64,000 nucleotides of DNA from Luteimonas padinae. Its GTDB lineage: Bacteria > Pseudomonadota > Gammaproteobacteria > Xanthomonadales > Xanthomonadaceae. Shown in pieces: positions 6,284-32,710 of the stretch (position 1 is its first letter; each line of letters starts with the position of its first letter). The position numbers and the translations under genes were made by a program. The notes beneath the pieces were generated by a model. That model saw only the letters and a list, made by a program, of their open reading frames with translations, did no database searches and was not told the DNA's origin. The stretch lies in NCBI RefSeq assembly GCF_014652935.1, contig NZ_BMZT01000001.1:248001-312000 (forward strand). Reading direction: 5' to 3'.

Positions 6284-6360
6284 GCGCCCGTAGCTCAGCT
6301 GGATAGAGCACCAGGCTACGAACTTGGGGGTCGGAGGTTCGAATCCTTCCGGGCGCGCCA
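6284..6360 (+). tRNA. tRNA-Arg (anticodon ACG), integration site of the island
   Basis: The acceptor stem GCGCCCG pairs with CGGGCGC, followed by discriminator G and CCA. The anticodon loop CTACGAA gives ACG, read as ICG after deamination. The gene is complete. From the first base of its anticodon loop (6316) onward it is duplicated at 25179, which marks it as the attachment site of the downstream island. Confidence 0.95.
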
Positions 6361-6387
6361 TAGAAAAAGCACAAGGGTCAACGGCTT
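6316..6387 (+). repeat. attL: left copy of the 72-bp direct repeat
   Basis: Bases 6316-6387 are identical to 25179-25250. The repeat spans the tRNA-Arg gene from the anticodon loop to its CCA end plus the first arm of its terminator. Insertion therefore left a functional tRNA on this side. Confidence 0.9.
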
Positions 6388-6406
6388 AGCGCTCGTTGGC
6401 CCTTTT
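6373..6406 (+). terminator. tRNA-Arg terminator
   Basis: AAGGGTCAACG (6373-6383) pairs with CGTTGGCCCTT (6394-6404) through one wobble and is followed by a short T run. The att repeat ends inside the loop. The duplicate at 25236-25269 can form an equivalent hairpin. Confidence 0.65.
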
Positions 6407-6430
6407 GCGCTGTGGGCGCCGCACATCTTC

Positions 6431-6614: not shown

Positions 6615-9600
6615 ATGACCAACCAGTTTTTCGAACAGCCAATCCTCAATTCGCCGTACGAGTACCCGTCCAGCCACTGGGAGCTGGATGCGACCGGCCA
6701 GCCCACGCAGGAAATCGCCCCCAGCCGCCGTCGGGCGGACTTCATCACCCCGATTCCCAGGCCCCGCAAGCGCAAGGGTGGGGCCGGCGACCAGGCCAGC
6801 CTGACTTTCGACGAGGGCAGGGGGCTTTCGACGGACGAACAGGCCTACGACCACACCGCCATCATCAACGCCGTCCGCCATGAAGTGGACGTCTGGCGCA
6901 AGCTGCCGCAGGCCCAGTGGCGCGTCACCCCCGAAACCGCCCGCCTGCTGCAACACTGGCGCCACCACCCGTTCGCGGGTGTCCGCCCGTTCTTTTGCCA
7001 GGTCGAGGCCGCCGAAACCGCCATCTGGCTGACCGAAGTCGCCCCGCAGATCGGCAAGAGCGGCGATCGCTTCCGTGAGCACCTAAAGAAGGCCAACAAC
7101 GACGCCAACCCCGAGCTGATGCGTCTGGCCCTGAAGCTGGCCACCGGCGCGGGCAAGACCACGGTCATGGCCATGCTGATCGCCTGGCAGACCATCAATG
7201 CCGTACGTCACCCCAACAGTAAGAAGTTCACCCGCGGCTTCCTGCTGGTGGCGCCGGGCCTGACCATCAAGGACCGCCTGCGTGTCCTGCAGCCCAACGA
7301 CCCGGACAGCTACTACGCCAGCCGCGAGATCGTGCCGCGCGACATGCTGCACGACCTCGACAAGGCCAGGATCGTCATCACCAACTACCACGCGTTCAAG
7401 CTGCGCGAGCGCATCGAGTTGTCCAAGGGCGGTCGTCGCCTGCTGCAGGGGCGCACCGGCGAGGCGCTGGAGACGCTGGAAACCGAAGGCCAGATGCTGC
7501 AGCGGGTCATGCCCGAGCTGATGGGCATGAAGCACATCCTGGCTATCAACGACGAAGCGCATCACTGCTACCGCGAAAAGCCGGCCGAAGAGAGCGACGA
7601 GGATCTGGCTGCCGACGAGAAAGCCGAAGCCAAGGACAACAACGAGGCCGCCCGCCTGTGGATCTCCGGCTTGGAGGCGGTCAACCGCAAGATCGGCCTG
7701 CAACAGGTGATCGATCTCTCGGCGACCCCATTCTTCCTGGCCGGCTCGGGCTACGCCGAGGGCACCCTGTTTCCGTGGACCATGAGCGACTTCTCGCTGA
7801 TGGACGCCATCGAGTGCGGCATCGTCAAGCTCCCGCGTGTGCCGGTCGCCGATAACGTCCCCGGCGCTGAGATGCCCATCTACCGCGAGCTGTGGAAGCA
7901 CATCGGCAAGAAGATGCCGAAGAAAGGACGCGGGAAGGCAGCGCAGCTGGACCCACTGGCCATTCCGGTAGAGCTGCAGACCGCGCTGGAGGCCCTCTAC
8001 GGCCACTACGTCAAGACCTACGACGCCTGGAAGCAGGCCGGCATCCAGGTGCCGCCGTGTTTCATCGTGGTCTGCAACAACACCGCCACCTCCAAGCTGG
8101 TGTACGACTACATCTCCGGCTTCGAGCGCAGCAATCCTGATGGATCGATGACGCCGGTTCCCGGCCGACTGGAGTTGTTCCGCAACTTCGACGAGCACGG
8201 CAACCCGATGGCTCGGCCCAACACCCTGCTGATCGACAGCGAACAGCTCGAATCCGGCGAAGCGCTGGACGACAACTTCCGCGGCATGGCGGCTGATGAG
8301 ATCGAGCGATTCCGTCGCGAGATCATCGAGCGCACCGGTGACCGCAAGCAGGCCGAGGCCATCACGGATCAGGAGCTGCTGCGCGAAGTGATGAACACGG
8401 TCGGCAAGCAGGGTCGGCTGGGCGAGCAGATCCGTTGCGTGGTGTCAGTATCGATGCTCACCGAGGGCTGGGACGCCAATACCGTCACCCACATCCTCGG
8501 CGTGCGCGCCTTCGGTACCCAGCTCCTGTGCGAACAGGTCATTGGCCGCGCCCTGCGCCGCCAGTCCTACGAATTGAACGACAAGGGCCTGTTCGACGTG
8601 GAATATGCCGACGTCTTCGGCATTCCCTTCAACTTCACCGCTGAACCCGTGGTCGTGCCGCCGCCAAAGCCGCGCAAGACCGTGCACGTCAAGGCGATGC
8701 GGCCGGAGCGCGATCATCTGGAGATCGAGTTTCCGCGCGTGCAGGGCTACCGCGTCGAACTGCCGGAAGACCAGCTCGAAGCCGAATTCAATGCCGACCA
8801 CGTGCTGACACTGACGCCGGACATGGTCGGCGCCACCCGGACGCACAACGCCGGCATCATCGGCGAAGCGGTGGAGCTGGACATCAAGCACCTGGGCGAC
8901 GTGCGCCAGTCCACCCTGCTGATGGAACTCACCAAGCACCTGCTGTTCCAGCACTGGCGTGATGCCGGCGAGGACGCGCCGATCAACCTGTTCGGCCAAC
9001 TCAAGCGCATTACCAGGCACTGGCTAGACACTTGCCTGGAATGCAAGGGCGGCACCTATCCGGCGCAGCTCATGTACCGCGAACTGGCGGACATGGCCTG
9101 CGAGCGCATCACCAAGGGCATCACCAACAAGGAGCTGGAGAAGGGCCGCCAAGTCAAGGCGATCCTCGATCCGTTCAACCCCACCGGCAGCACCGCGCAC
9201 GTCGGCTTCAACACCTCGCGCGAAGACCGCTGGGAGACCCAGGGCCCGCCGCCGAAGAACCACGTCAACTGGGTGATCCTGGACAGCGACTGGGAAGGCG
9301 AGTTCTGCCGCGTGGCTGAATCCCACCCCAGGGTGCTGGCCTACACCAAGAACCACAACCTCGACCTCAAGGTGCCGTACCGCTTCGGCTCCCTGACCCG
9401 CACCTATCTGCCGGATTTCATCGTCAAGGTGGATGACGGCCACGGTCCGGACAACCCCCTCAACCTCATCGTCGAGATCAAGGGCTACCGCCGCGAGGAT
9501 GCCAAGGAAAAGAAGTCCACGATGGACACCTACTGGATCCCCGGCGTGAACCACCTGGGCAGCCACGGCCGCTGGGCCTTCGCGGAGTTCGTGGATTTGT

Positions 9601-10082
9601 ATGAGATGCAGGAAGACTTCGCGCAGCGGGTGGAGGTCGAGTTCGCGAAGATGATCGAGCGCGCCTCGGGTCGCGAATTCGACCTGCTCACGGTGATGGC
9701 CAATCGCTCAGAACGATTGCTCTCATCGTTCTTGAAGTGCCAGCCGGGTTTGACCAGGGTAGTTCGTGGCTTCTGGGAGCTGGCGAGGGGACGCGAACAC
9801 CATCAAATCTACCTGGGTGACATTGCGTGGATGGGGGAGCAAACCCAATGTGATGCCGACGAGACATTCTCCGTCCTGTCCCTGTTGACTGGCGAGCAGC
9901 CCGGACAATTCCGATTGAATCTCACGAACTCCATCAATGGATGCCCGGTTTCGCCCAGCGAAGTGGCCGAAAGGCTCAGGGCCTCCCGGCGGGGGGAATC
10001 CGGGGTGGAGGCCTGGGTCGAATGGGCGGGGCTGGTCGAGGTGACATGGCAGCCCAATCCGCTGGATTCGTCCCATGAGTAG
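6615..10082 (+). CDS. Type III Res-like helicase-endonuclease (BPTD_3080-type)
   Basis: The 1155-residue protein resembles the Res subunit of type III restriction enzymes, which translocates on DNA and cuts when paired with a Mod subunit. It shows superfamily 2 motifs in order: Walker A ATGAGKTT (about 176-183), motif II NDEAHH (about 312), SATP (about 368) and motif VI QVIGRALRR (about 641). A PD-(D/E)xK nuclease centre follows near 933-955 (PDFIVKVDD then VEIKG). A more AT-rich C-terminal extension from about residue 1030 is not needed for these motifs and may be specific to this lineage. I chose the ATG at 6615 (MTNQFFEQPILNSPYEYP) over the open frame from 6555 because GGGAG precedes it and the family begins this way. 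It heads the operon and overlaps the next gene by 8 nt. Confidence 0.88.
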   Translation: MTNQFFEQPILNSPYEYPSSHWELDATGQPTQEIAPSRRRADFITPIPRPRKRKGGAGDQASLTFDEGRGLSTDEQAYDHTAIINAVRHEVDVWRKLPQAQWRVTPETARLLQHWRHHPFAGVRPFFCQVEAAETAIWLTEVAPQIGKSGDRFREHLKKANNDANPELMRLALKLATGAGKTTVMAMLIAWQTINAVRHPNSKKFTRGFLLVAPGLTIKDRLRVLQPNDPDSYYASREIVPRDMLHDLDKARIVITNYHAFKLRERIELSKGGRRLLQGRTGEALETLETEGQMLQRVMPELMGMKHILAINDEAHHCYREKPAEESDEDLAADEKAEAKDNNEAARLWISGLEAVNRKIGLQQVIDLSATPFFLAGSGYAEGTLFPWTMSDFSLMDAIECGIVKLPRVPVADNVPGAEMPIYRELWKHIGKKMPKKGRGKAAQLDPLAIPVELQTALEALYGHYVKTYDAWKQAGIQVPPCFIVVCNNTATSKLVYDYISGFERSNPDGSMTPVPGRLELFRNFDEHGNPMARPNTLLIDSEQLESGEALDDNFRGMAADEIERFRREIIERTGDRKQAEAITDQELLREVMNTVGKQGRLGEQIRCVVSVSMLTEGWDANTVTHILGVRAFGTQLLCEQVIGRALRRQSYELNDKGLFDVEYADVFGIPFNFTAEPVVVPPPKPRKTVHVKAMRPERDHLEIEFPRVQGYRVELPEDQLEAEFNADHVLTLTPDMVGATRTHNAGIIGEAVELDIKHLGDVRQSTLLMELTKHLLFQHWRDAGEDAPINLFGQLKRITRHWLDTCLECKGGTYPAQLMYRELADMACERITKGITNKELEKGRQVKAILDPFNPTGSTAHVGFNTSREDRWETQGPPPKNHVNWVILDSDWEGEFCRVAESHPRVLAYTKNHNLDLKVPYRFGSLTRTYLPDFIVKVDDGHGPDNPLNLIVEIKGYRREDAKEKKSTMDTYWIPGVNHLGSHGRWAFAEFVDLYEMQEDFAQRVEVEFAKMIERASGREFDLLTVMANRSERLLSSFLKCQPGLTRVVRGFWELARGREHHQIYLGDIAWMGEQTQCDADETFSVLSLLTGEQPGQFRLNLTNSINGCPVSPSEVAERLRASRRGESGVEAWVEWAGLVEVTWQPNPLDSSHE

Positions 10083-10698
10083 CCCTGACAGCTCTTTGCT
10101 GGCGCTTGTTGAGCGCATTCGGGCCAAGGCGCCCGAGTACGTCGATCTGATGGCGGCTGAATCCGAAGCGGATTTTGATAAGGCCTTCGATGCGATCCTG
10201 GAAAGATCGCTCCATCATCTGGAGACGAACGGCAAGAACCTTGCGAGTCTGGACGAGAACGGCCTGACTGCCGTCCTGGCCGGCGCGTTGTCCGTCCCGG
10301 GGTTGAGCGTATCGCAGGAGGCGAACTCAAACGGGCATGTGGACATCACCATAAGCGCCAATTACTGCTCTCCGATGAGGAAGAAGCTTGGCGAGGCGAA
10401 GGTCTACGGTGGTCCGGAATACCACCTGAAGGGGCTGAACCAGCTCCTTGCACGATACTCGACGGGTCACGAGTGTCGGGGTCTGGTGATCGCTTACGTC
10501 AAGCAACAGAACATCAAGGGGTTGATCGAAAAGGTCAGGGATAAAATGGATGCCGACCTGCCCGAGCATCAGCAGGGAAAGACAATGGATCACCCGTGCA
10601 AATGGCACTTTCTGTCCAGACATCTGCATTCGAGCGGAGAGGTGCTTGAGGTAGGGCACGCAGGCTGCAATCTGCACATTGATGGTCACGGTGCATGA
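10075..10698 (+). CDS. Small protein with a possible PD-(D/E)xK nuclease core
   Basis: I do not recognise this 207-residue protein as a named family. The first 80 residues look helical and acidic. The middle contains GHVDITI and, about 20 residues on, GEAKVYGG, followed by a helix (HLKGLNQLLARY) and a strand (CRGLVIAYVK). An Asp, then E-x-K on the next strand, then an alpha-beta unit is the layout of PD-(D/E)xK nucleases, so a nuclease or nuclease-like role is plausible but inferred. It overlaps the Res-like gene by 8 nt and the Fic gene by 4 nt, so it should be made with them. Confidence 0.6.
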   Translation: MSSPDSSLLALVERIRAKAPEYVDLMAAESEADFDKAFDAILERSLHHLETNGKNLASLDENGLTAVLAGALSVPGLSVSQEANSNGHVDITISANYCSPMRKKLGEAKVYGGPEYHLKGLNQLLARYSTGHECRGLVIAYVKQQNIKGLIEKVRDKMDADLPEHQQGKTMDHPCKWHFLSRHLHSSGEVLEVGHAGCNLHIDGHGA

Positions 10699-11828
10699 AG
10701 TTCGAAACCTTCAAGCCCGGCCGCTGGCAGCAGCGCCTGCAGTACAAGAGTTTCGAGCCGGTGCCGGTGAACCACGACTGGCATTGGGAAGACCCGCAGA
10801 TCAATGTGCTGCTCGAATCGGCCAACCGCGCCCTGGGCGAGCTCAACGCCTATTCGCTGATCGTCCCGGACATCGACCTGTTCATCGAAATGCACGTGGT
10901 CAAGGAGGCGCAGACCTCCAGTCGCATCGAGGGCACCAACACCGGCATCGACGAAGCCGTGTTGCCGGAAGAGCAGATCAAGCCGGAGAAGCGCGACGAC
11001 TGGCGAGAAGTGCGCAACTACATCGACGCGGTCAACTTTGCCATTGCCGAGCTCGACAATCTGCCCCTGTCCAACCGGCTGCTCAGGCAGACCCACGCCA
11101 TCCTGCTGCGCGGGGCGCGTGGCGAGCACAAGCAACCGGGTGAGTTCCGCATCAGCCAGAACTGGATCGGTGGCTCCAGCCTGGCCGACGCCGCCTTTAT
11201 CCCGCCCCACCACGAGGGCGTGCCGGAACTGATGGGCGATCTGGAGAAGTTCTGGCACAACGAATCGGTCACCGTCCCGCACCTGATCCGTCTGGCCATC
11301 AGCCACTATCAGTTCGAGACCATCCATCCGTTCCTGGACGGCAACGGCCGTATCGGCCGCCTGCTGGTGCCGCTGTACCTGGTCAGCCATGGCCTGCTGG
11401 CCAAGCCCTCGCTGTACCTGTCGGACTTCTTCGAGCGCAACCGCGGCAGTTATTACGATGCCCTGACCCGTGTGCGCGTCTCGGGCGATCTGATCCACTG
11501 GGTGCGGTTCTTCCTGCGGGGCGTGGCCGAGACCTCCGCCAAGGGGCGCGACACCTTCGGCAAGATCCTGGTCCTGCGCACCGACGTGGAGCAGCGCATC
11601 CTGGCGCTGGGCAAGCGCGCGCCCAATGCCCGCGCCACATTGAACCTGCTGTATCGCCACCCGGTGATCTCCGCCGCCGACCTGGAGCACCAGCTCGGGG
11701 TGTCTGCCCCGACCGCCCAGGCCTTGGTCAAGGACTTGATTCGATTGGGAATCCTGGTCGAGATCACCGGCCAGATGCGTGGCCGGCTGTACGAGTTCGA
11801 ACCTTACCTTGATCTCTTCGCTAGTTAA
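10695..11828 (+). CDS. Class II Fic-domain protein (predicted AMP-transferase)
   Basis: Fic enzymes usually transfer AMP from ATP to hydroxyl groups of target proteins. The 377-residue protein has a complete active-site motif HPFLDGNGRIGR (about 211-222), with catalytic His and the phosphate-binding GNGR. An N-terminal inhibitory motif SSRIEGT (about 75-81) has its Glu placed to block ATP binding, as in class II Fic proteins. The last 80 residues form a predicted winged helix (HPVISAADLEHQLGVSAPTAQALVKDLIRLGIL), suggesting DNA binding. Its ATG overlaps the previous stop (ATGA). The 54-bp gap to mod contains GTTAAC-type repeats (11825-11854). The target is unknown; in this operon it could modify a subunit of the restriction complex or a host protein. 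Confidence 0.9.
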   Translation: MKFETFKPGRWQQRLQYKSFEPVPVNHDWHWEDPQINVLLESANRALGELNAYSLIVPDIDLFIEMHVVKEAQTSSRIEGTNTGIDEAVLPEEQIKPEKRDDWREVRNYIDAVNFAIAELDNLPLSNRLLRQTHAILLRGARGEHKQPGEFRISQNWIGGSSLADAAFIPPHHEGVPELMGDLEKFWHNESVTVPHLIRLAISHYQFETIHPFLDGNGRIGRLLVPLYLVSHGLLAKPSLYLSDFFERNRGSYYDALTRVRVSGDLIHWVRFFLRGVAETSAKGRDTFGKILVLRTDVEQRILALGKRAPNARATLNLLYRHPVISAADLEHQLGVSAPTAQALVKDLIRLGILVEITGQMRGRLYEFEPYLDLFAS

Positions 11829-11882
11829 CCGAAAGCGATTAACGTTAACTAACGGCAACCCGAACGCAAGTCTGAACACGCC

Positions 11883-14753
11883 ATGTCCCGAAAGCCCCGC
11901 AAACCCAAAGCCCCGCTCCGCGTCGAGGATCTCGCCCACGGCGAGGCCAGACGCAAGAACATCCCGACGGTGGAGCACCAGTCGGTGATGCACGAGCACG
12001 AGCAGGTGCCGATCAAGGTGAAGTACCCGCGCGGCGGCAACGGTCTGGACGGCGAGAAGGCGCAGCGCAACCCGGATCTGGACCCGCAACTGGTCTGGCG
12101 CGGCAAGGACCAGCAGGACTGGTCCGACCTGGTGGTCAACGCGCCGCCGCTCTACATCCAGGAGAAGGTCAAGCCCAAGGTCCTGATCGACGACCTGCGC
12201 CGGCTGAGCGAGCAGGCCGCTGCGCCGCAGGCCGGTGACGTGGCCGACCTGTTCGGCGACTTCAACGGCCTGCCCGAAGGCGCCGACCGCACCGAGTTCT
12301 ACCAGCACGAAGGCCACTGGCAGAACCGGATGATCCTGGGCGACAGCCTGCAGGTGATGGCCAGCCTGGCGGAGCGCGAAGGCCTGCGCGGCAAGGTGCA
12401 GTGCATCTATTTCGATCCGCCGTACGGGATCAAGTTCAACAGCAACTTTCAGTGGTCAACGACCAGCCGCGACGTGAAGGACGGCAATGCCGACCACATC
12501 ACCCGCGAGCCGGAGCAGGTGAAGGCGTTTCGGGATACGTGGAAGGACGGGATTCATTCGTACCTGACGTATTTGCGCGATCGCTTGATGGTGGCGCGGG
12601 ATTTGTTGACGGAATCCGGTTCAATTTTTGTGCAGATTGGCGATGAGAACGTGCATCGCGTTCGTGCGGTGATGGATGAAGTGTTTGGGGATGAGAATTT
12701 TGTCCGCCTCATTACCTTCGTCAAGACGACTGGTCAAACCGATAATCTTCTGGCATCAGTGTCAGATTACATACTCTGGTACGCAAGGGATCGGCCAAGG
12801 GCAAAGTATCGCCAGCTTTACAAGCTGAAGACCTTGGGCGGCGAGGGCGCACTTGCCTATTCGAAGGCGCAACTCAGCGGAGGAGTGCGTGCACCGCTAG
12901 CGATGGTGCTCGATGCGGACGGCACCTTGCCAGATGGTGCAAAGCCTTACACGACGAGCGACCTCACAAGTCAAAGTCCAGGGACACGTTATCTCGTCGG
13001 GTTCGAAGGATCGGATTACATCCCTAAGGGCTACTGGAAGACAGAGCAGGCAAGCTTTCCGAGGCTAATTCGATCTTCGCGCATTGAAGCCGTCGGGCAG
13101 AATCTGCGCTACGTTCGCTTCTTTGATGATTACCCTGCCTTCCCAACTAATGACAACTGGAGTGACACTGGCGTAGCGGGCTTTACCGCAGACAAAATCT
13201 ACGTCGTGCAAACGTCGCCAAAGGTCATCGAGCGCTGCATCCTGATGTGCACCGACCCCGGCGACTTGGTGCTGGACCCAACCTGCGGTTCTGGCACCAC
13301 GGCCTACGTCGCCGAACAATGGGGTCGTCGCTGGATCACCCTCGACACCTCGCGCGTGGCGCTGGCATTGGCTCGCGCCCGAATCATGGGCGCGCGTTAT
13401 CCGTTCTACCTGCTTTCCGACAGCCGCGAAGGCCAGCTCAAGGAAGCCGAAGTCACCCGCAGCGCGCCGTCCTCGCAGTCCGTGTACGGCAACATCGCTC
13501 ACGGCTTCGTCTATGAACGCGTGCCGCATATCACCCTGAAGTCCATCGCCAACAACGCCGAGATCGACGTCATCTGGGATTCGTCGCAGGAAAAGCTTGA
13601 ACCGCTGCGCGAAGCCTTGAACAAGGCGCTGGGCAAGCAGTGGGAAGAATGGGAGATTCCGCGCGAAGCCGACGCCAAGTGGAGCGCCAGCGCGAAGAAG
13701 ATGCACACCGACTGGTGGCAGCAGCGCATCGCCCGCCAGCAGGAGATCGACGCCTCCATCGCTGCCAAGGCCGAGTACGAGTTCCTTTACGACAAGCCCT
13801 ATGAGGACAGAAAGAAGGTGCGCGTGGCCGGTCCCTTCACCGTCGAAAGTCTCAGCCCGCATCGCGTGCTCGGCGTGGACGAGGAAGATAACCTGATCGA
13901 CCAGACTGCCGAGGACCGCGCCGACTACGGCCAGGACTTCACCTCGATGATCCTGTCCAATCTCGCAACAGCCGGCGTGCAGCAGGCGCACAAGGCCGAC
14001 CGGATCGAGTTCGAATCACTCGAAACCTGGCCCGGCGACCTGATCTGCGCCGAAGGCCGCTACCTGGAGCAGGGCAAGCCGAAGCGCGCCGGCATCCTGA
14101 TCGGCCCCGAGTTCGGCACCGTCTCCCGCGCCGACCTGGTGGACGCAGCCCGCGAGGCCGGCGACGCCGTCTTCGACGTGCTCATCAGTTGCGCCTTCAA
14201 CTACGATGCCCCTGCCAGCGAGTTCAGCAAGCTCGGCCGCATCACCGTGCTCAAGGCCCGCATGAACGCCGACCTGCACATGGCCGAAGACCTGAAGAAC
14301 ACCGGCAAGGGCAACCTGTTCGTGATCTTCGGCGAGCCCGATGTGGACGTGCTCGACACCCAGGGCCGCAGCATCCGCACCTACGACGGCAGCAAGGACG
14401 TGATCGACCTGCCCGCGGGCGAGGAGCTGGTGGTGCGCATCAACGGCGTGGACGTCTTCCACCCGAGCACCGGCGAAGTCCGCAGCGACGGCGCCGACGG
14501 CATCGCCTGCTGGTTCATCGACACCGACTACAACGAAGAATCCTTCTTCGTCCGCCACGCCTACTTCCTCGGCGCCAACGACCCCTACAAGTCGCTGAAG
14601 ACCACCCTCAAGGCCGAAATCGACCCAGACGCCTGGGCCACCCTCCACTCCGACACCTCCCGCCCGTTCCCCAAACCCACCACCGGCCGCTTCGCGGTGA
14701 AGGTCATCAATCACCTGGGGGACGAGGTGATGAAGGTGTTCAAGGTGTCCTGA
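11883..14753 (+). CDS. Type III Mod DNA methyltransferase (beta class)
   Basis: The 956-residue protein should methylate adenine (or cytosine N4) in a short asymmetric site and give sequence specificity to the Res-like partner. The catalytic DPPY lies at 178-181 and the SAM-binding DPTCGSGTT at about 465, an order that defines beta-class enzymes such as type III Mod. The target-recognition region lies between them. Bases 12530-13240, which encode it, are clearly more AT-rich and use different codons from both sides, suggesting that the recognition domain was exchanged by recombination. At over 950 residues it is longer than classical Mod (about 650) owing to a C-terminal half that I cannot assign. 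Confidence 0.92.
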   Translation: MSRKPRKPKAPLRVEDLAHGEARRKNIPTVEHQSVMHEHEQVPIKVKYPRGGNGLDGEKAQRNPDLDPQLVWRGKDQQDWSDLVVNAPPLYIQEKVKPKVLIDDLRRLSEQAAAPQAGDVADLFGDFNGLPEGADRTEFYQHEGHWQNRMILGDSLQVMASLAEREGLRGKVQCIYFDPPYGIKFNSNFQWSTTSRDVKDGNADHITREPEQVKAFRDTWKDGIHSYLTYLRDRLMVARDLLTESGSIFVQIGDENVHRVRAVMDEVFGDENFVRLITFVKTTGQTDNLLASVSDYILWYARDRPRAKYRQLYKLKTLGGEGALAYSKAQLSGGVRAPLAMVLDADGTLPDGAKPYTTSDLTSQSPGTRYLVGFEGSDYIPKGYWKTEQASFPRLIRSSRIEAVGQNLRYVRFFDDYPAFPTNDNWSDTGVAGFTADKIYVVQTSPKVIERCILMCTDPGDLVLDPTCGSGTTAYVAEQWGRRWITLDTSRVALALARARIMGARYPFYLLSDSREGQLKEAEVTRSAPSSQSVYGNIAHGFVYERVPHITLKSIANNAEIDVIWDSSQEKLEPLREALNKALGKQWEEWEIPREADAKWSASAKKMHTDWWQQRIARQQEIDASIAAKAEYEFLYDKPYEDRKKVRVAGPFTVESLSPHRVLGVDEEDNLIDQTAEDRADYGQDFTSMILSNLATAGVQQAHKADRIEFESLETWPGDLICAEGRYLEQGKPKRAGILIGPEFGTVSRADLVDAAREAGDAVFDVLISCAFNYDAPASEFSKLGRITVLKARMNADLHMAEDLKNTGKGNLFVIFGEPDVDVLDTQGRSIRTYDGSKDVIDLPAGEELVVRINGVDVFHPSTGEVRSDGADGIACWFIDTDYNEESFFVRHAYFLGANDPYKSLKTTLKAEIDPDAWATLHSDTSRPFPKPTTGRFAVKVINHLGDEVMKVFKVS

Positions 14754-14755
14754 CC

Positions 14756-17700
14756 ATGCAACCAGGTGACAAGGTCAGGTTGATCGCCAACCCGGGTAGG
14801 ATCGGCATCATCGGTAACGAAACCGATGGGCCGCCCCACCGACAGCGTGTGCTGGTCAACTTTCTGAATGGTGATGAGCAATTCATCCTGCTCGGTTCCC
14901 TGGAAAAGGTTGAGCGCGGCCCCCAAGGGCCCTATGAGCTGATGCGGAACGGCAGTTTTGGACGGGCCTCGGATCTGCGCGGCGCGATCACGCATTACCG
15001 ACTCAGCGGAAAGCTGGCGAACCTGATCTACAGCCTGAACACGACCAACACCAGGTTTCTTGCCTACCAGTTCAAGCCGGTGCTCCAGTACCTCGATTCT
15101 CCGAGCAATGGCCTGCTGATCGCCGACGAAGTCGGTCTCGGCAAAACCATCGAAGCCGGGTTGATCTGGACCGAGCTGCGTGCCCGCGAGGACGCCAGAA
15201 GGCTGCTCGTGGTCTGTCCGGCCATGCTCTGTGACAAATGGAGGCGTGAGCTGGACGACAGATTCGGCGTGCGCGCGCAGATCACGGATGCGGCAGGTTT
15301 GCTTGATCACCTGAGGAAGGCGAAAGCGAGGCCGCAAGAGGCCTTTGCCCTGATCGTCAGCCAGCAGGGCGCGCGCCCGCCGCGCGGCTGGAACGACGAC
15401 GAAGCGCCCTCCCAGCGATCAGCTGCAAAGCTCGCCCGATTCCTGCTGGAAGAGGGGATCGAAGAGCCGCTGCTGGACCTTGTCATCATCGACGAGGCCC
15501 ATTACCTGCGGAACAGGGAAACCCAAAGCAATAGGTTTGGGCGTCTGCTCCGACCCGTCACGCAGGGCATGGTCATGCTCTCGGCGACGCCGGTGCAACT
15601 GAACAATAGTGATCTGTTCAACCTGGTTCACCTTCTGGACGAAGACGCGTTCCCGTTCGATTTCCTGTTCGATATTTCATTGAAGGCCAATGCGCCGATC
15701 GTGCGTCTGCGGGATGCGGTTCTGGCCGGTACGATCGTCCAGGAGACGTTCGTCGAGGCGGTTCAGGGGACGCTCGACAACCCGTTTTTCGACACGAACG
15801 CGCAGCTCGAGTACCTCCTTCGGAATCCTCCTTCCGATACGGACCTGGCCAGCCCGGAGTTTCGGTCCGAATTGGCAGATCGTCTGGATCGGGTGAATCC
15901 GCTATCGAAAGTCGTCTCTCGAACACTCAAACGGGATGTTCAGGAGCTACGGGTGCAGCGCCTCCCGCATGTCATCAAGGCCGTCATGTCCCCGGTGGAG
16001 GCTGAGTTCTATGCCCGGGTGACCGAGAGCGTGCGCAGCTTCTGCGAGGACCTGCGGATTTCAGAAGGCTTCATGTTGACGATCCCGCAGCGGCAGATGG
16101 CCAGCAGCATGGCGGCTGCCTGCAAGGGCTGGCAGGACAAGCTCGGGAAGGGTGCGGCGGAGACCGACGAGGAGTTGCTGTACGAGCTCGACGCGATGGA
16201 GTTCGACGATGGTGAGTCGGGGTTGGGTCCCTTGCTCAGCCAACTGGTCCGAATCGCCAAGTCAGTCGGAGACTTCCAGGCGTTGCGCGATAACGACAGC
16301 AAGTTCCAGATTCTGCTGAAGAACCTGGTGGCCTACTGGGAGCGGAATCCTGGCAAGAAGGTCGTCCTGTTCTCGTTCTACAAGAACACCCTGTACTACT
16401 TGGCCGAACGACTGAAACAATCCAGCATCGACTCCATCATCGTCCACGGCGGAGTCGACAAGGATGAAGCTCTGAGGCAGTTCGAGTCGAGCCAGGGCGC
16501 CAGGATCCTGCTGTCGACCGAGGTTGCAGCCGAAGGCGTCGATCTCCAGTTCTCCAGCCTGCTGGTCAACTACGACTTGCCATGGAACCCGGCCAAGATC
16601 GAACAGCGCATCGGCCGCATTGACCGAATCGGGCAGGAGGAACCCCAGATCCTGATCTGGAACCTGCTGTACGAGGGAACGGTAGACGAGCGGGTGCACG
16701 ATCGACTTCTGGATCGCCTTGATATTTTCCGCAATGCGCTGGGAAGCATGGAGGCCATTCTTGGCGAACAGATCAGGGACCTTGCCTACGAGCTGATGTC
16801 CCACCATCTTTCGGCAGACCGGGAGGTGGAGCTGATCGATCGAACGCAGGTCGCCATCGCCAACGTGAATCGCCAGCAGAAGCTGCTGGAGGAGGAGGCG
16901 ACTAACCTGATCGCCCATGGCGAGTTCATCCAGAACAAGGCGCGCGCTGCCAACGAGCTTGGCCGGTACATCCAGGGCGATGATCTGTACAACTACGTCA
17001 AGGACTACTTCCAGCGCCAGTACCCGGGCACGCGACTCCATTCTGAAGGCAGCGACGCGAACCTTGTGCGGGTGGAGCTTTCGACACAGGCAAGGATGGA
17101 TGTCGAAACCTTTCAAATTGGAAGCCGCCTGTCTGTCCGAAGCGCGGTGACAGCCCTGAATGCGCCATTGCTGCTGTTCGAGAACCGTGTTGGCAGGGCC
17201 ATACCGGGGGTAGAGCGCGTGACCCAGGACCACCCACTGGTTCGTTTCGTCGCCCAAGGGCTGCGGGCTTCCGGAGACGGGTCGGTGTATCACCCGGTCT
17301 CTGCCGTTGAGCTCCAAACGAATGTGGATACGGACGTTCCGCGGGGTATCTACGTATACGTGGTGGCGCGATGGACCATATCTGGATCCAGGGACATTGA
17401 GCGGTTGGAGTACCGTGCCCGTGGACTTGACCAAACGATGGTCCTTGAAGGGGAGCAGGCGGAGCGACTGGTCAATGCGGCTGCGCTGAAGGGACGCGAC
17501 TGGCTCGGCGCGAAAACCGTCGTGGACGGGGCCATCGCAGCCGACTACCAGAGCTTGTGTCTCGAAGAACTCGAAAGTGCGTTCAATGATTATGTGGCCT
17601 ACCACGAGCGCGAGAACACCGACCGGATAAAGCAGATGGTGGGTGCGCTAGAACGCAAGATCGAGAACAGCAGGCGGAAGACCGAGAATCAGATCGAACG

Positions 17701-17869
17701 CCATGCCGCGGCCAATGACAGGGGAAGAGTAGGTCGAATCAACGCCGCGCGCAGCCGCTTCGAGAAGGAGAAAAAGCGGCTACTGGCGAGAATGGAAGAG
17801 CTCAGGCTCAAGGGCAGCGTGAAGGCAGAGGAAAGCCCGGTCTCGGCGGGGGTAATTCGCGTGGTCTGA
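14756..17869 (+). CDS. RapA/SNF2-like helicase-translocase
   Basis: This 1037-residue protein has a full two-lobe SNF2/RapA-type motor: ADEVGLGKTIEAGL (about 121-134), DEAH (about 246), MLSATPVQ, and QRIGRIDRIGQ near 616. The N-terminus resembles a small beta-barrel (MQPGDKVRLIANPGRIGII) as in HepA-type proteins. The last 80 residues are a highly charged coiled coil (LERKIENSRRKTENQIER). It resembles DrmD of class 1 DISARM in general design, but drmA, drmB and drmC are absent. The start at 14756 lies 2 nt after mod; the open frame extends further upstream only in mod shadow. It probably translocates on DNA without unwinding it. Confidence 0.88.
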   Translation: MQPGDKVRLIANPGRIGIIGNETDGPPHRQRVLVNFLNGDEQFILLGSLEKVERGPQGPYELMRNGSFGRASDLRGAITHYRLSGKLANLIYSLNTTNTRFLAYQFKPVLQYLDSPSNGLLIADEVGLGKTIEAGLIWTELRAREDARRLLVVCPAMLCDKWRRELDDRFGVRAQITDAAGLLDHLRKAKARPQEAFALIVSQQGARPPRGWNDDEAPSQRSAAKLARFLLEEGIEEPLLDLVIIDEAHYLRNRETQSNRFGRLLRPVTQGMVMLSATPVQLNNSDLFNLVHLLDEDAFPFDFLFDISLKANAPIVRLRDAVLAGTIVQETFVEAVQGTLDNPFFDTNAQLEYLLRNPPSDTDLASPEFRSELADRLDRVNPLSKVVSRTLKRDVQELRVQRLPHVIKAVMSPVEAEFYARVTESVRSFCEDLRISEGFMLTIPQRQMASSMAAACKGWQDKLGKGAAETDEELLYELDAMEFDDGESGLGPLLSQLVRIAKSVGDFQALRDNDSKFQILLKNLVAYWERNPGKKVVLFSFYKNTLYYLAERLKQSSIDSIIVHGGVDKDEALRQFESSQGARILLSTEVAAEGVDLQFSSLLVNYDLPWNPAKIEQRIGRIDRIGQEEPQILIWNLLYEGTVDERVHDRLLDRLDIFRNALGSMEAILGEQIRDLAYELMSHHLSADREVELIDRTQVAIANVNRQQKLLEEEATNLIAHGEFIQNKARAANELGRYIQGDDLYNYVKDYFQRQYPGTRLHSEGSDANLVRVELSTQARMDVETFQIGSRLSVRSAVTALNAPLLLFENRVGRAIPGVERVTQDHPLVRFVAQGLRASGDGSVYHPVSAVELQTNVDTDVPRGIYVYVVARWTISGSRDIERLEYRARGLDQTMVLEGEQAERLVNAAALKGRDWLGAKTVVDGAIAADYQSLCLEELESAFNDYVAYHERENTDRIKQMVGALERKIENSRRKTENQIERHAAANDRGRVGRINAARSRFEKEKKRLLARMEELRLKGSVKAEESPVSAGVIRVV

Positions 17870-17892
17870 TATTCCTATCGGGGGGGTGGGAT

Positions 17893-19494
17893 GTGTTTAG
17901 TGCAATAAGGGATGCGTGGGAAAGGGCACTTCATCGGAAGGCGGCAGGGGACGAGAAGAAGCAGCTTGCACTTACGAGGGCGAATTCCGAGCAGGCAATC
18001 CTTCCGATTGCGAGCGTTGCTCCGCAGGCGGTGCCTGCTGCTGACGGAGAGGTTGCGGAACTACCAAGCAGGAGCGTTACTGTCTCCAAGGATCCAGTAT
18101 TCCGGGTAAGGTCCGCGCGCAGACGAGCGCCGTTGCTAGCCGTTTCCGTGGAAGATGCTGGGAAGCGACTGCAGGTTTCCGATCACGCAGTCCCGCAGCG
18201 TGAACTGACGTTGGGGCTGGACTTTGGGACGTCATGCAGCAAGATCATCATTGGCGACGCAGCTGCGGGGAAGTCGTTCGCCATCCCCTTCCATGAAGGC
18301 GTCGACATCGAGAGGTACCTGCTGGCGTCACGCGTGTATGAGACGGACGGTACGTACTCCCTGGTTGACGGCCCGATCGTGCATCGTGATCTCAAGCTGT
18401 CCTTCATTGACGGAAGCAAGGGTGACAACGGCGAGCGCAGAGTCGTGGCGTTCCTGGCGTTGGCCATCCGCCGGGCACGGGGCTGGCTGTTCCAGGCGCA
18501 TCGCGATGTCTATCTCGGTTCGAGTATCGTTTGGCGGTTGACGATCGGGCTTCCGACGCGCCAGAACCTGGATCGTCGACTGTCCGATCGATTCAGGTAC
18601 GTTGCGCTCGCGTCCTGGTACGTCGCCGGTGATGACGGGCCTGTTAATCGGTCGACGATCGATCGGGCGTTGGTAAGGGCAGTCGAGGAGCGGGGCGATT
18701 CCATGGACGTCGATGTCCAAGTCATGCCGGAGATCGCTGCCCAGATCTATGGCTTTGTCGTTTCGGACAGCTTCGATCGACTGGGGCGCAACATCTACCT
18801 GATGGCGGACATTGGATCGGGAACGGTCGATGCATCGCTGTTTCATGTGAAGGAGGAGAAGGGAAGGCGACACGCTTTCTCGTTCTATACGTCGACGGTC
18901 GAGCACAACGGCGTAAGCAACCTGCATCGCCATCGGGGCCGTTGGTGGATGAAGGTGTTACAGGAGGCCGAGGTGGAGCCGACCCTGATCCGGGAACTCG
19001 ATGATTCCATGGAGGTTACGGATCATGACTTGAGAATCCCAGAGGATTTCAGAGATTATTTCGATGGCATTGCCGTCAATGGAAGCTCCGTGGGTTCGCC
19101 TGATGACGACTTCTTCAGGGGGGTGGAGAGGCAGGTCGTTGCGGACACGTTCATACGCGCGGTGCGCGACAATCAGGCTCCGCAGCAGCAGCTGGTGGAT
19201 GTGCCGTTCTATCTCTGTGGCGGCGGATCGAGGATGCGCTACTACGCACAACTCAAACAGCGTCTAGAACGTCCGAGCAGAAACTTTGGAGTTTCTGCAA
19301 CCGGTACGCCGCTACCCGTTCCGGAAGACCTTGACGTTCCTGGGGTCGCTGGTGACTACGACCGCCTGTCAGTGGCGTACGGACTCGCTTGGCTGGACCC
19401 GGCATGGGTGGTGGAAACCGAGCCCATGTCGCCGATCGATGCCGCCGGTTCGCCAGGATGGCGGGACAACTATATCGACAAGGACCAGTTGTAG
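17893..19494 (+). CDS. Hsp70/actin-fold ATPase of unknown role in the defence operon
   Basis: The 533-residue product has the two phosphate loops of the Hsp70/actin superfamily: LGLDFGTSCSKIIIGD (about 107-122) and ADIGSGTVDASLFHV (about 305-319). A further glycine-rich stretch, FYLCGGGSRMRYY (about 437), fits the adenosine-binding loop. The first 100 residues are not part of the fold and look disordered. No Hsp70 substrate-binding domain follows, so it is not a normal DnaK. Translation starts at GTG 17893, after GGGGGGGTGGG. The gene is less GC-rich than its host. It lies 23 nt after the helicase and 4 nt before the UvrD fusion, so a role in assembling or sensing for the system is likely, but inferred. 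Confidence 0.75.
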   Translation: MFSAIRDAWERALHRKAAGDEKKQLALTRANSEQAILPIASVAPQAVPAADGEVAELPSRSVTVSKDPVFRVRSARRRAPLLAVSVEDAGKRLQVSDHAVPQRELTLGLDFGTSCSKIIIGDAAAGKSFAIPFHEGVDIERYLLASRVYETDGTYSLVDGPIVHRDLKLSFIDGSKGDNGERRVVAFLALAIRRARGWLFQAHRDVYLGSSIVWRLTIGLPTRQNLDRRLSDRFRYVALASWYVAGDDGPVNRSTIDRALVRAVEERGDSMDVDVQVMPEIAAQIYGFVVSDSFDRLGRNIYLMADIGSGTVDASLFHVKEEKGRRHAFSFYTSTVEHNGVSNLHRHRGRWWMKVLQEAEVEPTLIRELDDSMEVTDHDLRIPEDFRDYFDGIAVNGSSVGSPDDDFFRGVERQVVADTFIRAVRDNQAPQQQLVDVPFYLCGGGSRMRYYAQLKQRLERPSRNFGVSATGTPLPVPEDLDVPGVAGDYDRLSVAYGLAWLDPAWVVETEPMSPIDAAGSPGWRDNYIDKDQL

Positions 19495-19498
19495 CCCT

Positions 19499-21565
19499 AT
19501 GAACTTCCGGATCGCCGACACCTTCACTGCCAGCCTCGCCCGCCTCAGCGGCGACGAACAGAAGGTCGCCAAGACCACCGCCTTCGACCTGCAGATGGAT
19601 CCTGCCGGCAACGGCTTGAGTTTCCACAAGCTCGACCGTGCCAGGGACCCGAACTTCTGGTCGGTGCGCGTCAGCCGCGACATCCGACTGATCGTTCACA
19701 GGACTGCCGGCAGCCTGCTGCTGTGCTATGTCGACCACCACGACAAGGCCTACCAGTGGGCCGAGCGCCGGAAGCTGGAAACCCACCCGACCACCGGCGC
19801 GGCGCAGCTGGTGGAAATCCGGGAGCGGGTGCAGGAGATCGCCATTCCCCAGTACGTGCAGGCGGCCGCTCCGCTGCCGGCGGCGTTGTTCGGGGCGTAC
19901 GACGAGGGACAGCTGCTGGCCTACGGCGTGCCGCCGGAATGGCTGGCCGACGTGCGGACAGCCGATGAAGATCGCCTGCTTGACCTGGTTGACCACCTGC
20001 CGGCCGAGGCCGCCGAGGCGCTGCTTGAACTGGCGACCGGCGGCACACCGGTTGTGCCGCAGTCTGTCGGCACGAAGCAAGATCCCTTCCAGCATCCGGA
20101 TGCACAGCGCCGCTTCCGGGTCATGGCTGACGTGGATGAGCTGGCACGGGCGCTGGAGTTCCCATGGGACAAATGGACGGTGTTCCTGCACCCATCGCAG
20201 CGTCAGATGGTGGAGCGCGACTATAGCGGTCCTGCCCGCGTCTCCGGGTCTGCCGGGACCGGCAAGACCGTGGTAGCGCTGCATCGGGCTGTGCAACTGG
20301 CCGCCCGGGATGAAGATGCGCGAGTCCTTCTCACCACGTTTTCGGACCCGCTTGCCGCCGTGCTGAGGACGCAGCTGTTCCGCCTGGTCTGGAACACGCC
20401 GAGGCTTGCCGAGCGTGTCGATGTCCGGGCAATGGATGCGATCGGTATCAAGCTGTACTCGGCGGAATTTGGCAAGCCAGTATTCGCAAGTCAGGATGAA
20501 GTGTCCGGGCTCCTGACGTCCGCGGCCAACGGAGTGGATGGCCTGAAGGCAAGCCCGGCGTTCCTGCAGTCGGAATGGAACGACATCGTGGATACCTGGC
20601 AGGTTGGGAGCTGGGAGGAGTACCGCGATATCAAGCGGCTCGGTCGCAAGACCCGCTTGCCGGAAGCACAGCGCGCCCTGCTGTGGCAGGTGTTCGCCAG
20701 GGTCTGCCAGGACCTGGAGCAATCGGGCAAGATCACCAGGGCCGGGATGTTCAGCCAACTCGCGGAGGCCATGTCCAGACGCGAACATCCGGTCTTCGAT
20801 TACATCGTGGTGGATGAGGCACAGGACATTGGTGTCCAGCAGCTTCGTTTTCTGGCGGCGATGTCCGGCGGCAAGCCGAACGCGCTGTTCTTTGCCGGCG
20901 ACTTGGGGCAGCGCATCTTCCAGCAGCCGTTCTCTTGGAAGTCGTTGGGCGTGGACATACGGGGTCGATCCCGCACGCTGAATATCAACTACCGCACTTC
21001 GCACCAGATCCGCTCACAGGCCGATCGGCTGCTTGGGCCGGAGGTCTCCGACGTGGACGGCAACCTGGAGAGCCGGAAGGGGACCGTTTCCATTTTCAAT
21101 GGCCCTGTGCCGGTCATTGAAGCCTATTCCTCGCCCGAGAAGGAGATCGAGGCGGTTGGCGCATGGCTGCAGCAACGCAGCGGCGAGGGCGTCAATCCGC
21201 ATGAGATTGCGGTCTTCGTGCGTTCGGAGTTGGAGTTGTCTCGTGCACGAGCGGCTGTAGATGCGGCAGGGCTTCACGGACGAGTGCTTGGGAAGGAGAT
21301 GGCCACCGAGGAAGGATTCGTCAGCATCACGACGATGCATCTGGCCAAGGGCATGGAGTTCCGCGTGGTGGCGGTCATGGCCTGTGACGACGAGATCGTT
21401 CCTTCCCAGGCGCGGATCGGCTCGGCGGCGGACGAGGTTGAGCTGAGCGAGATCTATGAAACAGAGCGGCACTTGCTCTACGTGGCCTGCACGCGCGCCA
21501 GGGATCAGTTGCACGTGTCGGCCGTCTCGCCCGCGTCCGAGTTCCTGGAAGACTTAAACGGGTGA
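19499..21565 (+). CDS. RelE-like domain fused to a UvrD-type helicase
   Basis: The 688-residue protein starts with about 90 residues resembling RelE/ParE toxins or their mRNA-interferase fold (FHKLDRARDPNFWSVRVSRDIRLIVHR, LLLCYVDHHDKAYQWAERR). The remainder is a superfamily 1A helicase: SAGTGKTVVALHRA (about 250-263), VVDEAQD (about 437), GDLGQRIFQ, NYRTSHQIR, TMHLAKGMEFRVV and LLYVACTRARDQL. The ATG at 19499 lies 4 nt after the previous stop; the longer open frame from 19286 is out of context. It is the last gene of the operon: the IS3 element begins 34 nt later. RelE-UvrD fusions occur in many genomes and their function is not established. Confidence 0.85.
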   Translation: MNFRIADTFTASLARLSGDEQKVAKTTAFDLQMDPAGNGLSFHKLDRARDPNFWSVRVSRDIRLIVHRTAGSLLLCYVDHHDKAYQWAERRKLETHPTTGAAQLVEIRERVQEIAIPQYVQAAAPLPAALFGAYDEGQLLAYGVPPEWLADVRTADEDRLLDLVDHLPAEAAEALLELATGGTPVVPQSVGTKQDPFQHPDAQRRFRVMADVDELARALEFPWDKWTVFLHPSQRQMVERDYSGPARVSGSAGTGKTVVALHRAVQLAARDEDARVLLTTFSDPLAAVLRTQLFRLVWNTPRLAERVDVRAMDAIGIKLYSAEFGKPVFASQDEVSGLLTSAANGVDGLKASPAFLQSEWNDIVDTWQVGSWEEYRDIKRLGRKTRLPEAQRALLWQVFARVCQDLEQSGKITRAGMFSQLAEAMSRREHPVFDYIVVDEAQDIGVQQLRFLAAMSGGKPNALFFAGDLGQRIFQQPFSWKSLGVDIRGRSRTLNINYRTSHQIRSQADRLLGPEVSDVDGNLESRKGTVSIFNGPVPVIEAYSSPEKEIEAVGAWLQQRSGEGVNPHEIAVFVRSELELSRARAAVDAAGLHGRVLGKEMATEEGFVSITTMHLAKGMEFRVVAVMACDDEIVPSQARIGSAADEVELSEIYETERHLLYVACTRARDQLHVSAVSPASEFLEDLNG

Positions 21566-23201: not shown

Positions 23202-23816
23202 ATGGCCACGGCTCAGCGCGAAAAGGCACTCGATCTGCTTGGCAGCCATTCCATGCTGCGGGCAAGGGACTTTGCCGCCCATGGGATCTCCCCCGAGACG
23301 CTGTCGCGCCTTGTCCGGGATGGCGTCGTGGTGCGGCCGGCGCGGGGGCTTTACCAACTCGCCGATGGTCCCAGTGATGCCCGCCATGCTCTGGCTGAAG
23401 CCGCGACGCTGGTCCCCAAGGGCGTGATCTGCCTGATATCGGCACTGCAATTCCACGGGCTGACACTGCAGATGCCGTCAACCGTATGGATGGCGATCGA
23501 ACGCACGGCGTGGCGCCCACGCATCGACCATCCCCCCATCCGGTTCGTGCGCTTCACCCCCGTGGCCCTCAGTGAAGGCGTTGAGCGCCATCGCATCGAA
23601 GGCATCGAGGTCCCGATCACCGATCCGTCACGGACCATCGTCGACTGCTTCCGTTACCGGGCCAAGATCGGGATCGACGTCGCGCTGGAAGGGCTGCGCG
23701 AGGGGCTACGGCAGCGCAAGGCAACGAGCGACCAACTGTGGCGCCATGCCACGAAGGCGAGAATCTGGTCGACCATGAAACCCTATGTCGAGGCGACGGT
23801 GGCCGATGGCGCGTGA
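23202..23816 (+). CDS. AbiEi-family antitoxin/transcriptional regulator
   Basis: The 204-residue protein has the N-terminal winged helix of AbiEi antitoxins (MLRARDFAAHGISPETLSRLVRDGVVVRPARGLYQL) followed by the AbiEi C-terminal domain (ISALQFHGLTLQMPSTVWMAI, ITDPSRTIVDCFRYRAKIG, EGLREGLRQRKA). Such proteins neutralise the partner toxin and repress the operon. The toxin gene overlaps its end by 11 nt. No strong ribosome binding site is visible close to the ATG; GAGG at 23179 is too far away. Confidence 0.88.
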   Translation: MATAQREKALDLLGSHSMLRARDFAAHGISPETLSRLVRDGVVVRPARGLYQLADGPSDARHALAEAATLVPKGVICLISALQFHGLTLQMPSTVWMAIERTAWRPRIDHPPIRFVRFTPVALSEGVERHRIEGIEVPITDPSRTIVDCFRYRAKIGIDVALEGLREGLRQRKATSDQLWRHATKARIWSTMKPYVEATVADGA

Positions 23817-32708: not shown

Positions 32709-32710
32709 GC

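What the first reader, a model, noticed from the sequence alone, without database searches (positions are those of the whole stretch)
6615..21565. Seven-gene operon combining type III RM, Fic, Hsp70-like and two extra helicases: candidate new defence system
Seen: the order Res-like helicase-nuclease, small putative nuclease, Fic, Mod, RapA/SNF2-like helicase, Hsp70/actin-fold ATPase, RelE-UvrD fusion, with overlaps or gaps of 2-54 nt, so one transcript is likely. Known: type III RM needs only Mod and Res; DISARM uses a methylase with a DrmD-like SNF2 protein but also needs drmA and drmB, which are absent. Inference: an extended type III system in which the added helicases, a chaperone-like ATPase and a Fic enzyme sense, amplify or restrain restriction, or act as a second, suicidal layer. 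It lies in a tRNA island next to AbiE, a typical defence setting.
Basis: partly seen in the sequence, partly recalled or inferred. Interest (0 to 1): 0.85.

Follow-up and report, generated by a model that had tools for sequence, protein, structure and literature searches.

The report
Restriction operon carrying swappable defence cargo
A bacterial genomic island carries a DNA-cutting immune operon whose core genes recur across many bacteria while the genes tucked between them change from one to the next, here including an unusual pair of ATP-driven proteins found elsewhere in other settings.

Summary
The seven co-directional genes (6615-21565) are real and closely packed, but they are not a conserved seven-gene system. 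A core recurs: BPTD_3080-family Res, long type III-like Mod, RelE-UvrD helicase. Of 80 Mod relatives, 74 have Res upstream (five others end near Mod; one was not scored) and 43 have the RelE-UvrD gene downstream; 24 lack it with at least 8 kb in view. Two slots, Res-Mod and Mod-UvrD, hold interchangeable genes, many defence- or toxin-like: 107 of 112 are co-directional, against 58 of 104 just downstream. Fic recurs in slot 1 (8 of 74). The DrmD-like/Hsp70-like pair is in slot 2 only here, yet is adjacent in 16 of 16 loci where the neighbour is in view, in Proteobacteria and Cyanobacteria. The RelE-UvrD protein is a full-length relative (34%) of ARMADA ArmD. The 'Hsp70' is an actin/Hsp70-superfamily ATPase, not a shown chaperone. 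Best reading: a type III-like RM/ArmD core carrying nested modules. Embedding in RM loci is known; I found no report of this carrier, the ArmD link or the pair in ten paper searches.

The parts
6307..6409 (+). left attachment-like repeat at the 3' end of tRNA-Arg(ACG)
   Evidence: 103-bp, 95% direct repeat with 25171-25272; tRNA by ARAGORN
6615..10082 (+). gene A, Res: BPTD_3080-family type III-like restriction helicase-nuclease (core); about 137 extra C-terminal residues (from about 9669)
   Evidence: NCBIfam NF046055 1369 bits; TGAGKT, DEAH, PDF...ExK motifs; plasmid relatives stop matching at about residue 1018; extension matched only in L108 among the loci searched
10075..10698 (+). gene B, small PD-(D/E)xK-like protein (slot 1 cargo)
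   Evidence: PDC-S54 weak, 21.6 bits; HVDI...EAK; one relative among the loci searched, L108, 206 bits
10695..11828 (+). gene C, SoFic-type Fic enzyme with inhibitory-helix motif (slot 1 cargo)
   Evidence: PADLOC SoFic 392 bits; HPFLDGNGRIGR and SSRIEG; Fic in slot 1 of 8 of 74 relatives
11883..14753 (+). gene D, Mod: beta-class N6-adenine type III-like methyltransferase (core)
   Evidence: PADLOC MTase_III 1724 bits; DPPY at 178 and DPTCGSG at 465; EcoP15I Mod match E 5e-15
14756..17869 (+). gene E, DrmD-like SNF2 translocase (slot 2 cargo, first of pair)
   Evidence: PADLOC DrmD PDLC02623 860 bits; NCBIfam DrmD 406 bits, below cut-off 610; motifs
17893..19494 (+). gene F, actin/Hsp70-superfamily ATPase (slot 2 cargo, second of pair)
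   Evidence: GLDFGT, DIGSGTVD, LCGGG motifs; adjacent to E in 16 of 16 loci in view
19499..21565 (+). gene G, RelE-like domain (about 19499-19768) fused to UvrD helicase; ArmD-like (core)
   Evidence: AlphaFold model of residues 1-119 matches YoeB/RelE/YafQ; 34% over the whole length to the ArmD protein of L179
21621..22766 (-). IS3-type element just after the operon
   Evidence: rve/rve_3 domains; 16-bp inverted repeats; IS3 family name is my reading
23202..24723 (+). AbiEi/AbiEii pair in the same island (neighbour, not part of the operon)
   Evidence: PF13338 and PF08843
25171..25272 (+). right attachment-like repeat of tRNA-Arg 3' end

Best explanation
The locus is a type III-like restriction-modification core (Res, Mod) joined with an ArmD-like RelE-UvrD helicase, in an operon with two slots that accept other genes, many of them immunity genes. 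Shown: recurring core order, variable slot contents, co-direction of the cargo, intact motifs, the predicted RelE fold of G, and the E-F pair as a recurring unit elsewhere. Inferred mechanism: Mod marks self DNA by N6-adenine methylation; Res translocates on and cuts unmarked DNA; G loads on the resulting ends or stalled complexes and acts as a second layer through helicase and RelE-type RNase activity. In slot 1 an auto-inhibited Fic, with the small nuclease-like B, acts as a guarded back-up. In slot 2 the E-F pair (SNF2 DNA translocase plus an ATPase switch) is a separate anti-DNA module that in several other loci sits with different nucleases and here borrows, or runs alongside, the RM nuclease. 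The operon thus delivers several layers under one control.
For: Res upstream of Mod in 74 of 80 relatives; five of the other six have under 2.1 kb of sequence before Mod and in one, L120, the caller missed Mod. RelE-UvrD downstream in 43 of 80, and by the simpler call also in L120. Slot genes 107 of 112 co-directional against 58 of 104 (three genes after UvrD) and 111 of 173 (three genes before Res); Fisher P about 1e-12 and 7e-11. 64 of 88 gaps in the all-plus slot-2 stretches are 60 nt or less. 103 slot proteins of at least 80 aa fall in 60 clusters; among locus pairs with Mod at least 75% identical and at least one of the two slots filled, 7 of 103 share a slot-1 family and 2 of 40 a slot-2 family. 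Cargo families include Fic, Bro-N/ORF6N, BrnT, HepT, TIR, PIN, GmrSD, SIR2, ABC-3C, Subtilase beside AAA, IrrE, AAA_15/21 (PADLOC matches). E-F adjacent in 16 of 16 loci in view, with a TM0106 RecB-like nuclease, an AAA protein and a restriction endonuclease in three. G is ArmD-like; [quoted passage not shown]
Against: No experiment, no transcript data, no methylation data. G is absent within at least 8 kb in 24 of 80 loci, so it is not obligatory. The loci were chosen by Mod similarity and many are MAG contigs; 12 more without G have under 8 kb in view. E-F in slot 2 is one observation. 35 of 74 slot 1 and 12 of 43 slot 2 hold no called gene. Slot genes come from home-made callers: a longest-frame one and a codon-usage one, which differ in places. 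Cargo sharing is low at every Mod identity, so turnover cannot be dated. Some slot proteins have no Pfam domain (for example L078 366 and 124 aa, L121 471 aa).
Confidence: 0.62

Rival explanations
1. A single integrated seven-protein system: all parts sense, amplify or restrain restriction together.
For: Tight spacing and two overlaps; no premature stops and no broken motifs among those checked.
Against: E and F are in none of the 74 first slots and 43 second slots in view among 80 Mod relatives; F and Mod co-occur only in the window in two draws of 227 family genomes; B and the Res extension are shared with only one of the loci searched.
Confidence: 0.1
2. A functional analogue of ARMADA type II: DrmD-like E, Mod, Res and ArmD-like G play the parts of ArmA, ArmB, ArmC and ArmD, with type III Mod/Res replacing the PglX-like methylase and YprA helicase.
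For: G matches ArmD over its whole length, 34%, E 3e-102; E shares the SNF2 core with ArmA; both are a methylase plus three helicases (PMC12458937, passages).
Against: Mod and Res show no similarity to ArmB and ArmC; E is in no slot of the 80 core relatives, though a weaker DrmD-like gene lies downstream of G in two (L118, L148).
Confidence: 0.15
3. An ordinary type III RM pair with unrelated hitch-hiking genes collected by chance in a defence island.
For: Defence islands collect genes; slot contents are diverse; 35 of 74 slot 1 and 12 of 43 slot 2 hold no called gene.
Against: Co-direction of slot genes far exceeds that of neighbours; some cargo families recur, Fic 8 times; G is kept at 49-79% identity to the window in 16 aligned relatives.
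Confidence: 0.13

Closest known systems
Type III RM (EcoP15I Mod/Res)
   Same: Beta-class N6 methylase related to EcoP15I Mod (E 5e-15); Res with ResIII helicase domain and a PD-(D/E)xK-like site.
   Different: Mod is 956 aa; Res belongs to the BPTD_3080 family and has no solved relative by phmmer at E 0.001; RelE-UvrD gene and cargo slots.
ARMADA type II (PMC12458937)
   Same: RelE-UvrD ArmD-like protein, full length; a RapA/SNF2-type helicase beside a methylase.
   Different: No similarity to the PglX-like methylase or the YprA helicase by BLASTP; different core.
DISARM (DrmD)
   Same: E scores 860 bits with a PADLOC DrmD model.
   Different: Below the NCBIfam DrmD cut-off (406 against 610); no other DISARM protein recognised among the seven; paired with F instead.
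Defence genes embedded in type I RM loci: TgvAB (PMC11411939), DarTG2 (PMC12255303); guilt-by-embedding candidates (Payne 2024, seen only as cited)
   Same: Cargo genes inside an RM operon; slot-1 proteins match several PADLOC PDC candidates.
   Different: The carrier here is a type III-like core with two slots.
CoCoNuT Hsp70-like ATPases (PMC11090510)
   Same: An Hsp70-superfamily ATPase tied to a restriction system.
   Different: There fused to McrB or McrC; here a stand-alone partner of a SNF2 translocase.

Membership tests
Type III restriction-modification | Beta-class Mod (DPPY before the SAM-binding motif) | tested here: met
   DPPY at 178, DPTCGSG at 465; MTase_III 1724 bits; class order rule recalled
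Type III restriction-modification | Res with SF2 helicase and endonuclease domain | tested here: met
   ResIII 36.2 bits over cut-off 22.5; endonuclease domain 21.1 bits, just under its cut-off 23.4; PDF...ExK present
Type III restriction-modification | Mod-Res complex cutting at unmodified asymmetric sites | not testable with these tools
   needs biochemistry
ARMADA type II | ArmD: RelE domain fused to GajB/UvrD-like helicase | tested here: met
   34% over full length; RelE fold. L179 is taken as ARMADA because its gene order and eight residues at the positions mutated in the paper agree: 136, 236; 605, 971; 110, 234; 266, 454
ARMADA type II | ArmA BrxHII/RapA-like helicase | tested here: inconclusive
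   E and ArmA share only local SNF2-core matches, 29% over 200 residues, 75 bits
ARMADA type II | ArmB PglX-like methyltransferase | tested here: not met
   Mod against ArmB of L179: best 21 bits, E 0.66
ARMADA type II | ArmC YprA-like helicase with DUF1998/MZB | tested here: not met
   Res against ArmC of L179: 18 bits, E 7.4; the only MZB match in the genome is on contig C12, not C1
DISARM | DrmD SNF2 helicase | tested here: inconclusive
   PADLOC 860 bits, NCBIfam 406 bits below cut-off 610
DISARM | DrmB (DUF1998) in the locus | tested here: not met
   no MZB match on the window's contig
DISARM | DrmA and DrmC elsewhere in the genome | not tested
   only the seven proteins were scanned; E hits a DrmA model at 183 bits, read as shared helicase core
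Hsp70 chaperone | actin/Hsp70-type ATPase motifs | tested here: met
   GLDFGT, DIGSGTVD, LCGGG; aligned: DFGT and GGG in 16 of 16, the last Asp of motif 2 in 15 of 16
Hsp70 chaperone | recognisable Hsp70 family and substrate-binding domain | tested here: inconclusive
   no HSP70 Pfam hit in any of 10 members at E up to 1; only weak ParM, BiP and sugar-kinase matches; the 5-row model was poor
Nested RM-embedded defence | cargo inside an RM operon, same direction, variable between relatives | tested here: met
Nested RM-embedded defence | cargo gives defence on its own | not testable with these tools
   needs phage assays
Class II (auto-inhibited) Fic AMPylase | HPFx(D/E)GNGRxxR plus (S/T)xxxE(G/N) inhibitory motif | tested here: met
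   HPFLDGNGRIGR at 211, SSRIEG at 75; class rule recalled

The most novel reading that the evidence does not exclude
The DrmD-like translocase plus actin/Hsp70-superfamily ATPase is an undescribed, self-standing two-protein immune motor that plugs into different nuclease platforms (RecB-like, PLD-like, and here a type III RM/ArmD core). The RM core itself is a platform with two cargo docks whose anti-phage output depends on the shared ArmD-like RelE-UvrD effector.
Probability: 0.3. Interest if true: 0.75.

Novelty: new variant of a known kind. Interest (0 to 1): 0.52.

Why it matters
It turns an apparently new seven-gene system into two testable, more general findings. One is a widespread type III-like RM/RelE-UvrD core with two cargo slots, a source of uncharacterised candidates. 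The other is a conserved translocase-ATPase pair that recurs in Proteobacteria and Cyanobacteria with different partners. The ArmD link joins a restriction family to ARMADA and suggests that a RelE-UvrD protein is a shared effector.

Tried and rejected
DISARM was rejected (no DUF1998/MZB match on this contig; DrmA and DrmC were not sought in the genome). A conserved seven-gene cluster was rejected. The AlphaFold model of F from five rows was poor (pLDDT 48) and was not used. A genome-contig scan with F alone found no relatives, and a viral-contig scan with the F alignment found none; both are limited by peptide patterns. Res has no match in 50,697 phage records at E 1e-20. No promoter signal above chance. 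Three relatives of the family were fetched: the left flank aligns up to the tRNA-Arg end, but the right flank beyond the repeat did not align as one block, so a clean empty site was not shown. Three weaker DrmD hits (G064, G068, G145; 373-405 bits) were not followed up for F. Weaker SNF2 hits of the E profile without F beside them (in L007, L067, L118, L142, L148, L153, L164, L165 and L209; 15-275 bits) are not counted as E. In L208 the contig ends next to F, so it was left out of the adjacency count; L162 carries nearly the same E-F block as L161, so 16 of 16 is 15 of 15 if they are counted once, window included. E and F profiles were built from six of these loci. Partners of the pair were not annotated in L206-L211, and none was recognised in L007, L008 and L163. 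VIA-align lists only Foldseek's own matches. Papers: PMC11090510, PMC11411939, PMC12255303, PMC12839542, PMC12458937 and PMC12988326 were seen as matched passages only; the Payne 2024 preprint was seen only as cited. 'No report found' rests on searches only.
Full report
WHAT IS THERE. Seven co-directional genes run from 6615 to 21565 with gaps of -8, -4, 54, 2, 23 and 4 nt. G starts at 19499. The motifs checked in A, C, D, E, F and G are intact, and B has a candidate nuclease motif. GC is 59-65% per kb in 6-25 kb against 67-76% in the six kb before and five kb after. A 103-bp, 95% direct repeat of the tRNA-Arg 3' end bounds the stretch at 6307-6409 and 25171-25272, so the operon, an IS3-type element and an AbiE pair lie in an island of about 18.9 kb. 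I recognised no integrase inside it; not every small frame was scanned.

THE CORE. A is a BPTD_3080-family restriction endonuclease (1369 bits, cut-off 800) and D a type III-like methylase (1724 bits). Res lies upstream in 74 of 80; five others have under 2.1 kb of sequence before Mod, and in one (L120) the gene caller missed Mod. The RelE-UvrD gene lies downstream in 43 of 80; 24 lack it with at least 8 kb in view and 12 lack it with less. L120 has it by the simpler call. The same core without E and F was seen on plasmids of Pseudomonas, Gemmobacter, Rhizobium and Sphingomonas. In 369 genomes of the class, 28 carry a BPTD_3080 match at E 1e-50, 23 over the cut-off, the window's own counted.

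THE LAST GENE. The first 119 residues of G fold (pLDDT 87, 21 rows) like YoeB/RelE/YafQ toxins (Foldseek probability 1.00, best E 2.5e-5; VIA Z 12.1, rmsd 2.0, 85 aligned to YafQ 4mmj). The conserved HHD...Y stretch (His80, His81) is kept; that it is catalytic is inferred. G is 34% identical over its whole length to a protein on an E. coli plasmid whose four-gene neighbourhood matches ARMADA type II of PMC12458937: same gene order, and the expected residues at all eight positions that the paper mutated (Lys136, Asp236; Gly605, Asn971; Lys110, Asp234; Lys266, Asp454). [quoted passage not shown] Mod and Res have no counterpart there by BLASTP.

THE SLOTS. Between Res and Mod (74 loci in view, 35 with no called gene) and between Mod and UvrD (43 in view, 12 with none) lie 54 and 58 called genes. 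52 of 54 and 55 of 58 are co-directional with the core, against 58 of 104 among the three genes after UvrD and 111 of 173 among the three before Res. 103 slot proteins of at least 80 aa form 60 clusters, 38 of them singletons. Among locus pairs with at least one of the two slots filled, those with Mod at least 75% identical share a slot-1 family in 7 of 103 and a slot-2 family in 2 of 40; at 70-75% the figures are 18 of 453 and 9 of 191, at 65-70% 30 of 1264 and 5 of 553. Pfam places many slot proteins among defence or toxin families, and PADLOC adds matches to candidate defence families, many of them overlapping ATPase models. The sets scanned came from an earlier gene call: 45 slot-1 proteins plus window B, and 53 of 55 slot-2 proteins, + strand and at least 90 aa only. 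Some have no hit. Slot 1 carries Fic in 8 of 74 loci, three of them close to the window's (over 700 bits). On named plasmids slot 1 also holds an UPF0175/DUF3368 pair (Picosynechococcus), and a CBASS phospholipase with a nucleotidyltransferase lies directly after Mod in Methylomagnum, where no UvrD gene was found.

THE E-F PAIR. F has no Pfam family; its closest solved relatives by sequence are weak ParM, BiP and sugar-kinase matches (E 0.058 and above). Aligned, the DFGT and GGG motifs are present in all 16 F proteins examined and the last aspartate of the second phosphate motif in 15 of 16. Genomes with F: 3 of 299, 5 of 398, 7 of 227 in the family, the window counted each time. Plasmid records: 3 with F at E 1e-5 and 6 with E at E 1e-80. 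Wherever the neighbour is in view F lies beside an E of over 900 bits (the window's own E was in the profile and not scored by it), 16 of 16 with the window, in the order E-F except in Leptolyngbya. Partners differ: a TM0106 RecB-like nuclease, an AAA protein and a restriction endonuclease in L006, L164 and L165, in three gene orders; a PLD-like protein in L161 and, below the Pfam cut-off, L067; helicases in L068; the RM core only in the window. In the others no partner was recognised or sought. E and F are in none of the slots in view of the 80 Mod relatives. In two draws of 227 family genomes F is in 7 and Mod in 8, overlapping only in the window.

HOW IT MOST LIKELY WORKS. Mod-Res restricts unmethylated DNA. 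G is a follow-on helicase/RNase effector, by analogy with ArmD. The Fic is kept off by its inhibitory helix and is a plausible back-up that fires when the core is disturbed. E-F is an ATP-driven DNA translocase with an ATPase switch, an independent module. All functional steps are inferred; the anatomy and its recurrence are shown.

KNOWN OR NEW. Embedding of defence genes in RM operons is established for type I loci (PMC11411939, PMC12255303, passages), and slot-1 proteins match several PADLOC candidate families. In the ten paper searches made I found no description of BPTD_3080/Mod/RelE-UvrD loci or of a DrmD-like/actin-Hsp70-type pair; CoCoNuT Hsp70-like fusions (PMC11090510, passages) are the nearest idea. 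I therefore file it as a new variant of a known kind.

Noticed in passing
window 9669-10082 and 10075-10698; L108 5886-9988: The extra C-terminal part of Res (41 bits) and the small gene B (206 bits) are matched together in one other locus only (Curvibacter, L108) among the loci searched, which suggests that they form a unit.
   Followed up: partly
L044 10269-19463: Methylomagnum plasmid: Res, small gene and Mod followed directly by a CBASS phospholipase and a nucleotidyltransferase.
   Followed up: no
L006, L164, L165: E-F pair with a TM0106 RecB-like nuclease, a large AAA protein and a restriction endonuclease in three loci, in three gene orders: a candidate system of its own.
   Followed up: partly
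L178 7787-19757: Qipengyuania plasmid: RelE-UvrD gene 50% identical to G between a TM0106 RecB-like nuclease with a small gene and a DUF4011 protein, with no Res or Mod annotated within 12 kb, so G also occurs on other platforms.
   Followed up: no
L148 18375-20593; L118 21305-23024: DrmD-like genes (275 and 112 bits) lie downstream of the RelE-UvrD gene in two Mod loci, not in the slot.
   Followed up: no
L048 and L161 (Sphingobium plasmids): A distant Mod-Res subfamily with reversed order (Mod before Res) next to TM0106 nuclease, exonuclease, AAA and DUF3320 genes.
   Followed up: no
window 30732-33734: Asparagine synthase-like protein with a glutamine amidotransferase domain, right of the island.
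   Followed up: no
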